Positions 5,781 to 32,973 of a stretch of 32,973 bases of DNA are shown piece after piece. Made by a program: the position numbers and the translations under genes. Origin of the DNA: Hyperthermus sp. (lineage in GTDB: Archaea; Thermoproteota; Thermoprotei_A; Sulfolobales; Pyrodictiaceae). The stretch lies in NCBI GenBank assembly GCA_003978665.1, contig QNYQ01000014.1, positions 1 to 32,973 of the forward strand, written 5' to 3'. Numbering within the stretch: the first letter of the stretch is position 1; every line of letters starts with the position of its first letter. The notes beneath the pieces were generated by a model. The model saw nothing but the letters and a program-made list of their open reading frames with translations, was not told the origin of the DNA and did not search any database.

Positions 5781-5857
5781 TGGCGGGCCGGCCGGGATTT
5801 GAACCCGGGACCTACGGGTTAAAAGCCCGCCGCTCTACCAGGCTGAGCTACCGGCCC
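5781..5857 (-). tRNA. tRNA-Lys (anticodon UUU), CCA encoded
   Basis: The minus strand folds as a complete tRNA. The acceptor pairs GGGCCGG with CCGGCCC; the D arm is GCTC-AGCCTGGTA-GAGC; the anticodon stem is GCGGG with loop CTTTTAA (anticodon TTT); the T arm is CCGGG-TTCAAAT-CCCGG. Discriminator G is followed by an encoded CCA (plus-strand TGG at 5781-5783). No intron is visible in the anticodon loop. It sits alone between hyuA and the NfeD-type gene. Confidence 0.97.
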
Positions 5858-29778: not shown

Positions 29779-30957
29779 TTGTCGAGAAGGGTTGCTATAG
29801 TGGGTGTGGGCCACTCGAAGTATGGGTATAGGTATGATGTGAGTATCGCAGAGCTTGCCTGGGAGAGCATTAAGGATGCTTTAGACATGGCTGGTGTCGG
29901 GCAGGATGACATAGAGTTTGTCGTGTACGGCAATGTCGGCGTGTGGAGTAGCGAGCCCCTGCCAGCCGTGGTGATCAACGAGTATGCCGGCTTAACTCCT
30001 AAGGGCACAATGAGGGTTGAGGCTGCATGCGCTACTGGTAGTGCTGCGATAAAGCAGGGATATGACATGGTTGCGGGCGGGCAGGCCGACCTCGTGCTTG
30101 TTGTCGGCGTGGAGAAGATGAATGAGTCTCCTACACCTATAGTGGTGGAGCTTATAGGGCGTGCAGGCAACTACTTCTGGGAGTTCGAGAATTTTGGCCT
30201 CACCTTCCCCGGCTACTACGCGCTCTACGCTACAGCATATATGTCGAAGTATGGGGCAACCGAGGAGGACTTGTGCAGGGTAGCAGTGAAGAACCACCAC
30301 TATGCCAGCATGAACCCGAAAGCGCATTTCCCGCGTAGGATAACATTGGAGGAGTGCATGAAGAGCCGCTATATCGCGTGGCCCTTCAAGCTGCTTGACT
30401 GCAGCCCTATAAGTGATGGGTCAGCAGCCATCATACTGGCCTCCGAGCACGTTGCACGAAAAATAACCGACAGCCCTGTATGGATAGAATCGGTAGGAGT
30501 CGCAAGCGATACATCCAATATTAGCAGAAGACCAGACTTCCTAATCCGCCGCGCCGTAGTTGCCGCAGCCAGAGAGGCCTACAAGAAGGCCGGAATAGAC
30601 CCTGATAAACCAGTGAAGTATATTGACGTAGCCGAGGTACACGACGCATTCACTATAGCTGAAATACTCAGCTACGAGGAGCTCGGCTTCGCAAAACAGG
30701 GTGAGGGCTACCTGCTAGTTAGGGAGGAGCAAACATACATTGGAGGACTCATACCAGTCAACGTCAGCGGGGGATTAAAGGCCAAGGGCCACCCCCTGGG
30801 AGCTACAGGGGTTGGAATGGCTGCTGAACTAGTGAACCAGCTGCTGGGGAGAAGTGAGAGGGGGAGGCAGGTCGAGGTTAGACATGGGAGAGCACTAGCA
30901 AGTAATGTGGGCGGAACCGGCCACTACGCCTATGTATTCGTATACTCGCTCACATAG
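29779..30957 (+). CDS. Thiolase (acetyl-CoA acetyltransferase, archaeal type)
   Basis: 392-residue thiolase of the archaeal SCP-x-like class, which condenses two acetyl-CoA to acetoacetyl-CoA (or the reverse). The nucleophile Cys about 84 is in 'MRVEAACATGSAAIKQGYDM'. 'VAEVHDAFTIAEILSYE' and 'GGLKAKGHPLGATGVGM' supply the catalytic histidines, and a second Cys-bearing motif of classical thiolases is absent, as usual in this class. In many archaea it sits with HMG-CoA synthase and a DUF35 zinc protein for isoprenoid lipid synthesis; neither is beside it here. The TTG start follows GGGAGGG. It is the last ordinary chromosomal gene before the AT-rich region. Confidence 0.92.
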   Translation: MSRRVAIVGVGHSKYGYRYDVSIAELAWESIKDALDMAGVGQDDIEFVVYGNVGVWSSEPLPAVVINEYAGLTPKGTMRVEAACATGSAAIKQGYDMVAGGQADLVLVVGVEKMNESPTPIVVELIGRAGNYFWEFENFGLTFPGYYALYATAYMSKYGATEEDLCRVAVKNHHYASMNPKAHFPRRITLEECMKSRYIAWPFKLLDCSPISDGSAAIILASEHVARKITDSPVWIESVGVASDTSNISRRPDFLIRRAVVAAAREAYKKAGIDPDKPVKYIDVAEVHDAFTIAEILSYEELGFAKQGEGYLLVREEQTYIGGLIPVNVSGGLKAKGHPLGATGVGMAAELVNQLLGRSERGRQVEVRHGRALASNVGGTGHYAYVFVYSLT

Positions 30958-31141: not shown

Positions 31142-31190
31142 TGGCGGGCCAGCCGCGAGTTTGAACCCGCGGGCCTCCGGCTCCGAAGGC
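31142..31190 (-). mobile_element. tRNA-Arg(UCG) 3' fragment: probable att site of an integrated element
   Basis: The minus strand from 31190 to 31142 matches the 3' part of a tRNA-Arg with anticodon TCG. It has anticodon loop CTTCGGA, 3' anticodon stem GCCGG, variable AGGCC, a TTCAAA T loop, acceptor strand CTGGCCC, discriminator G and an encoded CCA. The 5' half of the tRNA is missing: bases beyond the loop do not pair as the anticodon stem, and no D arm or 5' acceptor follows. The T arm is damaged and lacks the standard five pairs around a seven-base loop. A cut inside the anticodon loop with the 3' half kept is the typical leftover of archaeal tyrosine-integrase insertion into a tRNA gene. 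Confidence 0.7.
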
Positions 31191-31205
31191 TAGCATTCAT
31201 AAGGG

Positions 31206-31239
31206 AGTGTCCCGTAGATCGATGGTACTCTGGGACACT
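31206..31239. repeat. 8-bp inverted repeat beside the tRNA fragment
   Basis: AGTGTCCC (31206-31213) and GGGACACT (31232-31239) are exact reverse complements around 18 nt. It begins 16 nt from the tRNA fragment on its right side, at the predicted inner edge of the element. It could be an integrase arm-binding site, a hairpin or an insertion-sequence remnant. Confidence 0.5.
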
Positions 31240-31858
31240 TAAGTAGAGTTTTCATACCCATTATCTAGTATATGAGTCATTATCTTGTTATTTTAATCCT
31301 AATACATGACATATTAAGTCATAATAGAAAGGATAGCACTTTAAGAAGCTCAATAAGATACCCTTCAAAAACTCTAATCATGTACATGTTCGCGCTTAAA
31401 ACAATCTCTGCAATAATCTTAACATTCTGAAATGAGTGTATGCACCGTCAGAAGAGGGTATTTGACCTTTCCTTAGAATGCCTTGTCTCCCCTTTTATGC
31501 TATATAATGGATAAAGATACTCTCTACCAGTGCAACATTCTCGTTTATTAAGGTTCATCGCATAAGCCCTTTCCAGAGAGGCATTGCGGTAACCTACTAA
31601 TGATATTATTAACACTCCTTAACCTAATCCCCATTATAAACCAGCTCTAAACATAATTTATACATGCTGTAGAGGGGCTACCATAGACTTAGCGTAATGG
31701 GTGCCTATAGGCTTTAATGCAAAGTCTCAACAACCACTAACGGTTGCCTTCTTTTGGAGAAACTAATAGCTTAGATAGCTTGGAATGTTCCAGCCTTGAA
31801 AGCGAAAAATGAGATGGTGAATCAGTAAATCTCCTAACCATGTTACTCTTCAGTCTTT
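31240..31858. other. AT-rich gene-free stretch
   Basis: About 620 bases with no ORF above 60 codons. Composition is far more AT-rich than the preceding 31 kb, and stops are frequent in all frames. A 55-codon minus-strand frame (GTG 31615 to TGA 31448, with AAGGAG abutting the start) is the only open stretch I found, and its peptide resembles nothing I know. With the 30958-31141 gap, this makes a 900-base gene-poor zone around the tRNA fragment. Probably decayed element DNA; I see no integrase motif. Confidence 0.5.
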
Positions 31859-32353
31859 TTATCTTATCAGGTAGACTGTTATTTTGAGAGTTTTTGCTAT
31901 GTCTTCTTCTCTATTCTTAAAATCAATGTCGGCAGTTAATAGAGTGTGCACTCCTATGCCTTGCTCCTTCATAGCCTTGATGTAGGCTAGGTGGAGTAGA
32001 TCTAGAGTCTTGAGTCTCAGTTTTTCTGCCAGCTCTATGGAGTATGCTAGAGGCTTATAGAGCCGGCCAAGCATTGTCCTCGAAAACCCCTTTACATCGA
32101 CATATTTTAGATCGAACCTCTTTAGGACATATATGATCACCGCTATAAACGCTATGTGCTCACTTACACCTAGTCTACTCCTTATGCTGGCCATTACCCC
32201 GTGTTGTCTAGCAAGCACGCTGGCAAGCTCGGCTAGAACTAGCTCAGAGATCACCTTGCCATTGTGACGCTCTAAGGCCTCTCTAGCCCTCTCCCTTCTA
32301 GGATCTTCTGGGTCGAGTGCAGCTACTATTACGCTAGTATCGACGTAGATCAA
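31859..32353 (-). CDS. vapC: VapC-like PIN-domain toxin
   Basis: 164-residue PIN-domain ribonuclease. The first acidic residue is in 'MIYVDTSVIVAALDPED', a conserved Glu lies in 'SELVLAELASVLARQ', and Asp residues lie in 'LKTLDLLHLAYIKA' and 'LLTADIDFKNRE', together the metal site of VapC toxins. These cleave tRNA or rRNA when free of antitoxin. It starts with TTG 32353, 3 nt after the antitoxin stop. At 164 residues it is longer than the usual 125-140; the added segment around residues 65-100 is helical ('HIAFIAVIIYVLKRFDLKYV'). It lies inside the AT-rich region beyond the tRNA-Arg fragment, as expected for cargo of a mobile element. Confidence 0.88.
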   Translation of the reverse strand: MIYVDTSVIVAALDPEDPRRERAREALERHNGKVISELVLAELASVLARQHGVMASIRSRLGVSEHIAFIAVIIYVLKRFDLKYVDVKGFSRTMLGRLYKPLAYSIELAEKLRLKTLDLLHLAYIKAMKEQGIGVHTLLTADIDFKNREEDIAKTLKITVYLIR

Positions 32354-32356
32354 CGC

Positions 32357-32617
32357 CTAAAACCTCTCCCGCTCAGCTATCAATCGTCTTAGAGCCCTCC
32401 TGAGCTGTATCGGTATGTCCCCCTCCTTACTCTCTAGTTCGAAAAGCTTGTCCACGGACTCAGCAACCACCTTAATTCTCCTTACATGCCTAGCACCAAT
32501 CCTTATTAAATCCCTCAAAGCCTCACTCCTAGAACTATAGATACCTAGCCTCACGAGCTCCTCGATGAGCCTTAACGTGTCATCGTTAAGTCTAACGGGT
32601 ATAACCTTACTACCCAT
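32357..32617 (-). CDS. vapB: Ribbon-helix-helix antitoxin (VapB-like)
   Basis: 86 residues from ATG 32617. An N-terminal ribbon-helix-helix domain 'KVIPVRLNDDTLRLIEELVR' and 'YSSRSEALRDLIRIGARHV' would bind the operator; the charged C-terminal helices ('DKLFELESKEGDIPIQLRRA') would wrap the VapC toxin. The track start (32650) adds 'MYTYKYTRGVE', whose codons fall in the promoter palindrome. ATG 32617 has a good Shine-Dalgarno (GAGGGGTGGAG), so I use it. It shares one transcript with vapC and, as is known for RHH antitoxins, probably represses it through the palindrome at 32630-32655. Confidence 0.85.
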   Translation of the reverse strand: MGSKVIPVRLNDDTLRLIEELVRLGIYSSRSEALRDLIRIGARHVRRIKVVAESVDKLFELESKEGDIPIQLRRALRRLIAERERF

Positions 32618-32629
32618 CTCCACCCCTCT

Positions 32630-32655
32630 AGTATACTTATACGTATACATATACT
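32630..32655 (-). promoter_or_regulatory. Promoter-overlapping palindrome, probable VapB operator
   Basis: AGTATACT-TATACGTATA-CATATACT is a 26-bp palindrome in which 11 of 13 base pairs match, with a perfect 10-bp core TATACGTATA. It ends 13 nt upstream of ATG 32617. It includes the likely TATA region on the minus strand (TTAAGTATATG, about 32648-32658), so a bound dimer pair would block transcription. Confidence 0.65.
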
Positions 32656-32912
32656 TAAGTTTTCACCATCTATATTGCTTAGAAATAGTAAAGAAATAAT
32701 AAAATACAGCCGTGGCGGCTACTCCGCATTACAAGTAGCTTGTCTCTTAGCTACAGCTGGTAACAGCATCTAATATCTACTATACCATAGAATCTATAGT
32801 CAAATTGAAGACATTGAATATCGCCTTGATCCAGGTAATTAATACAGCAATAGTGCTAGACTTTAAGACATTTCATAGCTAAGTAACGATTAGAGGGGGA
32901 TATAAGAAAGCG
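32656..32912. other. Gene-free stretch with a GC-rich, hairpin-prone island
   Basis: About 257 bases without a gene. Most is AT-rich. At 32708-32770 a GC-rich island carries several short stems: AGCCG-TGG-CGGCT, ACAAG-TAG-CTTGT and TAGCT-TGTCTCT-AGCTA. It is preceded by AATAATAAAATAC, which can serve as a TATA box. A small structured RNA is possible, but I cannot assign a class. Nothing else is apparent. Confidence 0.3.
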
Positions 32913-32973
32913 GTGTTCATAGCGATAAAAGGTGATAAAATAGCATTGCCGGAACTACTATCCTTAATACCAG
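32913..32973 (+). CDS. Possible N-terminal fragment of a gene running off the window
   Basis: From GTG 32913 a frame stays open to the window end and reads 'VFIAIKGDKIALPELLSLIP' (20 residues). A Shine-Dalgarno-like AGAGGGGGA lies about 12 nt upstream, and an in-frame TAA precedes it (about 32881-32884). The TATAAG just upstream is rather close for a leader with this start. Too little is visible for a family. Confidence 0.3.
   Translation, partial: MFIAIKGDKIALPELLSLIP

What the first reader, a model, noticed from the sequence alone, without database searches (positions are those of the whole stretch)
31142..32973. Edge of an element integrated in tRNA-Arg(UCG)
The minus strand shows only the 3' half of a tRNA-Arg gene, broken at the anticodon loop (CTTCGGA) and keeping CCA. 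To its right the sequence turns AT-rich, is nearly gene-free and carries a VapBC pair. Archaeal SSV-type and related tyrosine integrases recombine at the anticodon loop and leave exactly such a 3' tRNA fragment at one end, with an intact tRNA at the other. Because the fragment points left, the element should lie to the right, up to an intact tRNA-Arg(UCG) outside this window. The damaged T arm suggests the insertion is old. This is the best candidate here for an undescribed genetic element.
Basis: partly seen in the sequence, partly recalled or inferred. Interest (0 to 1): 0.75.

Follow-up and report, generated by a model that had tools for sequence, protein, structure and literature searches.

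The report
tRNA-anchored toxin-antitoxin cassette arrays
The broken tRNA is the far end of a small mobile DNA cassette, one of a family that inserts into arginine-tRNA genes of heat-loving archaea, usually carries a single toxin-antitoxin gene pair and piles up head-to-tail like an integron array, and I found no published description of it.

Summary
A lone 3' half of tRNA-Arg, cut at the anticodon loop, lies on the minus strand at 31142-31188, and the AT-rich DNA to its right holds a VapBC pair. The window is one whole contig of a 61%-complete MAG, so the right side cannot be followed. Related genomes explain it. In several genomes, three of them closed, intact tRNA-Arg genes are followed by up to six displaced 3' halves, same strand, mostly 0.9-2.5 kb apart. 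At least 39 of 51 intervals collected carry toxin-antitoxin (TA) genes; most carry little else. The 85 bp before each displaced half is a conserved, typed end with an inverted repeat. A profile trained without the window hits it at 31271-31189 (E=2.4e-12), abutting the half. A model of this end (13 sequences, window included, no tRNA sequence) finds 107 copies in 50 of 229 genomes (33 genera); of 39 hits checked, 34 clearly adjoin a tRNA-Arg 3' half. Integrase-bearing elements have ends of similar design, so I infer integrase-less cassettes moved in trans by SSV-type integrases; that step is not shown. A split tRNA is rejected for a sister case: a closed genome with the same arrangement has all five tRNA-Arg genes intact.

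The parts
31142..31188 (-). Displaced 3' half of tRNA-Arg(UCG): anticodon loop CTTCGGA (31182-31188) to encoded CCA (31142-31144); T arm altered but still paired
   Evidence: sequence; alignment to tRNA-Arg 3' half; no 5' half, no tRNA called
31189..31271 (-). Conserved type-B right end of the integrated cassette, abutting the half
   Evidence: profile trained without the window, E=2.4e-12, 46.8 bits; later model R1, which includes the window, E=9.7e-17
31206..31239 (.). Inverted repeat agtgtccc / gggacact (31206-31213 and 31232-31239), 8-bp arms, 18-bp spacer, ending 17 nt from the half; candidate recombinase arm site (inferred)
   Evidence: same position in other types, mean score 6.84 against 5.17 +/- 0.17 shuffled
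31272..31858 (.). AT-rich stretch without credible genes, inside the inferred unit
31859..32353 (-). PIN-domain toxin (VapC-like), 164 aa; probable cassette cargo
   Evidence: PF01850 5.5e-14; relative about 65% identical in G052
32357..32650 (-). Ribbon-helix-helix antitoxin (VapB-like), 97 aa, directly upstream of the toxin
   Evidence: PF01402 3.3e-6
32651..32973 (.). Rest of the unit up to the contig end; the left end and intact tRNA-Arg(UCG) are expected beyond
   Evidence: inference; no further 3' half found between 31189 and 32973
29779..30957 (+). Thiolase, first chromosomal gene on the outer (left) side of the half
   Evidence: Pfam thiolase domains; relatives up to 85% identical but in other surroundings

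Best explanation
The window shows the far (right) end of a small integrative cassette in a tRNA-Arg gene, together with the 3' tRNA half that the insertion pushed aside. Shown: such units form tandem arrays downstream of intact tRNA-Arg genes; they are bounded by 3' halves that start at the anticodon loop; each displaced half is preceded by a conserved typed end with an inverted repeat; most units carry a TA pair and no trace of a recombinase. Inferred: the circular cassette carries a tRNA 3' half inside an attachment site; a tyrosine integrase supplied in trans (probably of the SSV type, Pfam PF16795, made by larger elements with ends of the same design) recombines it with the anticodon-loop region; the cassette's half restores the tRNA while the old half moves downstream. 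Repeated insertion at the same tRNA builds the array, and the TA pair makes each cassette hard to lose. In this genome the intact tRNA-Arg(UCG) should lie to the right, beyond the contig end.
For: Profile of the type-B end, trained without the window, hits 31271-31189 abutting the half, E=2.4e-12. Arrays of same-strand 3' halves downstream of intact tRNA-Arg, in closed genomes G044, G025 and G078 among others (spacing). 39 of 51 units carry TA genes (families). The end model without tRNA sequence finds 107 matches in 50 of 229 genomes; 34 of 39 hits checked are directly followed by a tRNA-Arg 3' half, against 24 of 780 random positions. ORFs next to 24 newly found ends are rich in TA families; ordinary tRNA flanks of G044 show none among the families listed. 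Type-C units share both ends. Integrase-bearing elements have ends of the same design. A congener, G004, has tRNA-Arg(UCG) followed by a type-B end and a decayed half.
Against: No SSV-type integrase in G000, G025 or G040. No circular or free form seen; viral-contig scans empty. The window's left end, intact tRNA and empty site were not seen. Its VapBC has a relative in an ordinary chromosomal setting in G052, so its place in the cassette rests on geometry. About a quarter of the units have no TA found by the homology search.
Confidence: 0.75

Rival explanations
1. The units are graveyards of larger integrated viruses or plasmids: everything except the addictive TA pair was deleted, so the short size is decay, not design.
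For: SSV-type integrative elements of 6-15 kb sit at the same tRNA genes; one 2.8-kb unit in L183 (type D) keeps an integrase fragment beside a TA pair; some halves and TA genes are decayed.
Against: Many units are a uniform 0.9-1.25 kb (17 of 41 spacings); type-C units keep both conserved ends around different cargo; no integrase trace in the other small units beyond the tRNA half itself; the same end types recur in 33 genera.
Confidence: 0.3
2. The window's VapBC is an ordinary chromosomal pair and only a decayed type-B remnant separates it from the half; the half is a true integration scar but the TA pair is not its cargo.
For: About 590 bp without genes between the end and VapBC; the nearest VapBC relative found lies in an ordinary chromosomal context in G052; the left end of the unit is not in the window.
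Against: Type-B ends elsewhere have TA pairs within 1.5 kb upstream; the stretch stays AT-rich to the contig end; no second half or tRNA lies between the end and VapBC.
Confidence: 0.2
3. A split tRNA gene: the 3' half is transcribed from its own promoter and trans-spliced to a separate 5' half.
For: Upstream sequence conserved, with TATA-like boxes, between the window and G018; 3' halves broken at the same place in several genomes; no intact tRNA-Arg(UCG) in this assembly.
Against: Closed genome G044 has intact genes for all five Arg anticodons and still has such halves; several halves in one array; conserved upstream sequence is shared by array units with TA genes; the missing tRNA is expected in a 61%-complete assembly.
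Confidence: 0.03

Closest known systems
SSV-type (PF16795) integrative elements of Thermoproteota in tRNA genes
   Same: Target tRNA 3' half from the anticodon loop; displaced 3' half at the far end; tandem insertion at one locus is known for archaeal elements (PMC8371274); ends of the same design in the integrase-bearing elements seen here
   Different: The small units have no integrase, are about 1-2 kb and carry mainly one TA pair; long same-type arrays; typed ends shared between units with different cargo
Integrons and CALINs, including archaeal integrons (PMC9668308)
   Same: Works like one: short cassettes in tandem separated by recombination sites, recombinase often absent from the array, TA genes among the cargo
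   Different: Recombination sites are double-stranded tRNA-gene halves with arm repeats, not attC hairpins; anchor is a tRNA gene, not attI; no IntI shown; IntI and attC were not searched for specifically
vapBC-rich variable regions of Sulfolobus islandicus (PMC3718332)
   Same: vapBC pairs reported in clusters of atypical genes, one of them inserted in a tRNA gene; tRNA genes as preferred integration targets
   Different: That paper describes nearly all vapBC loci as flanked by degenerate IS copies; the passages read mention no tRNA-half-bounded one-TA cassettes, typed ends or tandem arrays
Split tRNA genes of Archaea (PMC3218864, listed; details from own knowledge)
   Same: A lone 3' half of a tRNA gene broken near the anticodon
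   Different: An intact gene exists in the closed sister genome, the halves are serial, and they flank TA cargo

Membership tests
tRNA-Arg TA cassette family (type-B end), as defined here | 3' tRNA-Arg half starting at the anticodon loop, no 5' half | tested here: met
tRNA-Arg TA cassette family (type-B end), as defined here | Type-B end with inverted repeat abutting the half | tested here: met
   E=2.4e-12 with a profile that excluded the window; repeat
tRNA-Arg TA cassette family (type-B end), as defined here | TA pair within about 1.5 kb on the element side | tested here: met
   PIN + RHH at 31859-32650
tRNA-Arg TA cassette family (type-B end), as defined here | Intact tRNA-Arg or another half, with the left end, on the proximal side | not testable with these tools
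   contig ends at 32973; assembly 61% complete
SSV-type integrative element | PF16795 integrase in the element | tested here: inconclusive
   none in the window part of the unit or in the incomplete G000 assembly; the unit is cut off
SSV-type integrative element | att core = tRNA 3' half from the anticodon loop | tested here: met
Split (trans-spliced) tRNA | No intact gene for that anticodon in the genome | tested here: inconclusive
   not found in G000 but 39% of that genome is missing; not met in sister case G044
Split (trans-spliced) tRNA | Separate 5' half with complementary trailer | not tested
   no dedicated search for a 5' half was made
Integron / CALIN | attC sites and IntI | not tested
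   resemblance in layout only
Type II VapBC toxin-antitoxin | PIN toxin preceded by a small DNA-binding antitoxin in one operon | tested here: met
   PF01850 and PF01402, three bases between stop and start

The most novel reading that the evidence does not exclude
A tRNA-based cassette system of archaea, analogous to integrons: non-autonomous cassettes of about 1 kb with several exchangeable end types, each read by its own SSV-type integrase acting in trans, use tRNA 3' halves as recombination sites, stack at tRNA-Arg genes across an order and beyond, spread mainly toxin-antitoxin pairs, and in passing swap 3' halves, and with them possibly anticodons, between tRNA-Arg genes.
Probability: 0.4. 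Interest if true: 0.9.

Novelty: new variant of a known kind. Interest (0 to 1): 0.74.

Why it matters
It would explain part of how these archaea gather toxin-antitoxin pairs. It gives a record of successive insertions at essential genes and a simple testable platform (an att core plus arm repeat plus about 1 kb of cargo) that resembles an integron built on a tRNA gene. It also shows why tRNA fragments in these genomes should not be read as split tRNAs without checking for arrays.

Tried and rejected
Split tRNA: my first hypothesis after the initial pattern found only broken copies in relatives. That pattern required a one-nucleotide insertion and so missed intact genes; the intact gene in closed genome G044 refuted it there.

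Synteny of the thiolase to locate the empty site: neighbours are not conserved, so no empty site could be shown for the window.

Viral contigs: two end-type patterns and an integrase search found nothing.

A strict fragment pattern in named genomes gave only four loci, all from Thermoproteota MAGs.

Age gradient in arrays: a correlation exists only if the intact tRNA is counted (rho -0.50, n=38; displaced halves alone -0.23, p=0.22), so I do not claim it.

An insertion difference at tRNA-Arg(GCG) between G044 and G078 was seen, but no displaced half marks its border, so it is not used as proof of a new insertion.

The other two PIN genes of G000 (contigs C16 and C3) do not lie next to a type A-D end.

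Full report
What is in the window. On the minus strand at 31188-31142 lies the 3' half of a tRNA-Arg(UCG) gene, from the anticodon loop to an encoded CCA, with no 5' half. Neither ARAGORN nor Rfam calls a tRNA there. GC falls from about 0.55 to about 0.40 at this point. The right side holds only a PIN toxin and a ribbon-helix-helix antitoxin on the minus strand. No intact tRNA-Arg(UCG) was found elsewhere in that assembly.

False start. A 28-nt pattern from the half found two relatives in which the same piece is also a lone 3' half, one of them with similar upstream sequence. That suggested a split, trans-spliced tRNA. Closed genome G044 refuted this for its own copy: it has intact genes for all five arginine anticodons, including tRNA-Arg(UCG) only 3.1 kb upstream of the half. 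The first pattern had demanded a one-nucleotide insertion and so missed intact genes.

Arrays. Downstream of intact tRNA-Arg genes in several genomes there are further 3' halves on the same strand: three at tRNA-Arg(UCG) of G044, four at tRNA-Arg(CCG) of G044, five in G040, three in G025, four in G043, six in G034, three in G078 and two in G062. Contigs of G127 and G124 show six and seven halves without the intact gene in the stretch fetched. Spacings have a median of 1276 bp; 38 of 41 are at most 2500 bp. Of 51 units collected, window included, 39 carry toxin-antitoxin genes by homology to seeds, most of them verified with Pfam. The window's own VapBC is not among the 39, so this is a low estimate. 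Families seen: AF2212-like with PIN, UPF0175 with DUF3368, DUF433 with DUF5615, MazE with PIN, DUF2283 with DUF4258, PIN_2 and TumE. Some units also carry other or unknown genes, and some larger ones (in L183, L180, L184) show no TA pair. In G044 roughly nine of the 13 PIN rows listed lie in tRNA-linked arrays that make up about 1% of the genome, including one at tRNA-Val.

Typed ends. The 100 nt upstream of displaced halves fall into a few conserved types, each with a different inverted repeat ending mostly 17-21 nt from the half: A GTTTCCA/TGGAAAC, B GTCCCA/TGGGAC, C GTTGCAT/ATGCAAC, D GTTTCAG/CTGAAAC. Over 32 halves the best inverted repeat averages 6.84 against 5.17 +/- 0.17 in shuffles. 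A type-B profile from eight loci that did not include the window hits the window at 31271-31189 with E=2.4e-12, abutting the half. This is the strongest single result for the window. I chose the eight loci after seeing that the window's end resembled them, but the alignment itself did not contain it.

Wider test. A sequence model of the upstream 85 nt (13 sequences including the window, no tRNA sequence) was run over 229 genomes of the class: 107 matches in 50 genomes and 33 genera. Several matches are the training sequences themselves. In the 30 loci fetched, 39 profile hits were examined: 35 are followed by a sequence scoring at least 30 as a tRNA-Arg 3' half and 34 at least 40, against 30 and 24 of 780 random positions in the same loci. 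Of the remaining hits, one is cut off by the locus edge and the others are weak or lie opposite another hit. For 24 loci not used in training, 55 ORFs in the 1.5 kb upstream include six DUF3368, five UPF0175, five DUF433, five DUF5615 and single HicA, TumE, PemK and PIN proteins. Among 87 ORFs at 23 ordinary tRNAs of G044 only NUDIX matched twice, and no TA family is among the 25 families listed; families matched once are cut off in that list, so this control is not exhaustive.

Mechanism. Larger elements at tRNA genes carry an SSV-type integrase (PF16795) next to the intact tRNA: 9.6 kb in G043 at tRNA-Arg(CCG), 14.9 kb in G052 at tRNA-Arg(CCG), 6.3 kb in G052 at tRNA-Gly. Their ends show the same design, with the repeat motif near both ends. 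IntSSV1 exchanges strands at the borders of the tRNA anticodon loop (PMC8371274), where the halves begin. I therefore infer that cassettes are attP-bearing, integrase-less DNA moved in trans. Against this, two genomes with arrays, G040 and G025, have no PF16795 match, and no free form was seen. The alternative that units are remnants of larger elements is not excluded, but only one small unit keeps an integrase trace, and type-C units keep both ends.

Same genus. In G004, argS is followed by intact tRNA-Arg(UCG), about 690 bp with what reads like a UPF0175 antitoxin remnant (my reading of the DNA, not a profile match), a type-B end and a decayed half. In G002, argS and tRNA-Arg(UCG) are followed by a PF16795 integrase and a larger element. 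argS is my identification from the protein sequence. This makes the same target plausible for the window but does not prove it. Between congeners G044 and G078 the flank of tRNA-Arg(CCG) aligns up to the tRNA, and the array content beyond differs.

Limits for the window. The left end of its unit is not seen. Its VapBC has a relative about 65% identical in G052 in an ordinary chromosomal setting, so it is not certain that this pair is the cassette's cargo.

Novelty. Seven searches of the open-access library and look-ups in four papers gave no description of tRNA-half-bounded TA cassette arrays; most subscription papers are not held. Organism names were not available for the genomes used; the four named loci with similar halves are labelled Thermoproteota, Desulfurococcales, Acidilobaceae and Staphylothermus, so the host is a thermophilic archaeon of that group by inference.

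Noticed in passing
window 31142-31188; L122:13725; L123:131; L098:2518; L198:6042; L252:9941; L256:9623 and 10885: The odd T arm GGGTTCAAACTCGCG recurs in displaced halves of several genomes, so it is not simple independent decay; cause unknown.
   Followed up: partly
L122:11803; L187:6185; L183:9806: Displaced halves can carry another arginine anticodon than the intact tRNA at the same locus, as if elements move between tRNA-Arg genes and could swap anticodons.
   Followed up: no
L208:4008-5243 (G044): A perfect tRNA-Val(CAC) 3' half lies 1.2 kb downstream of the intact gene with a PIN gene between: the arrangement is not limited to tRNA-Arg.
   Followed up: partly
L183:236-9806 (G043): A 9.6-kb element at tRNA-Arg(CCG) with SSV-type integrase, a large N6 methylase protein and an AAA/DUF4143 ATPase.
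   Followed up: partly
L184:31-6591 (G018): A 6.5-kb unit between a tRNA-Arg(UCG) and a type-A end carries a GmrSD-like protein, a defence gene, instead of a TA pair.
   Followed up: no
L216:13754-14527 (G052): The closest relative found of the window's VapBC (about 65% identity) sits between a DUF58-like gene (my reading) and a dipeptidase-like gene, outside any array seen.
   Followed up: partly
window 5781-5857: An intact tRNA-Lys(UUU), minus strand, is the only tRNA gene called in the window.
   Followed up: no
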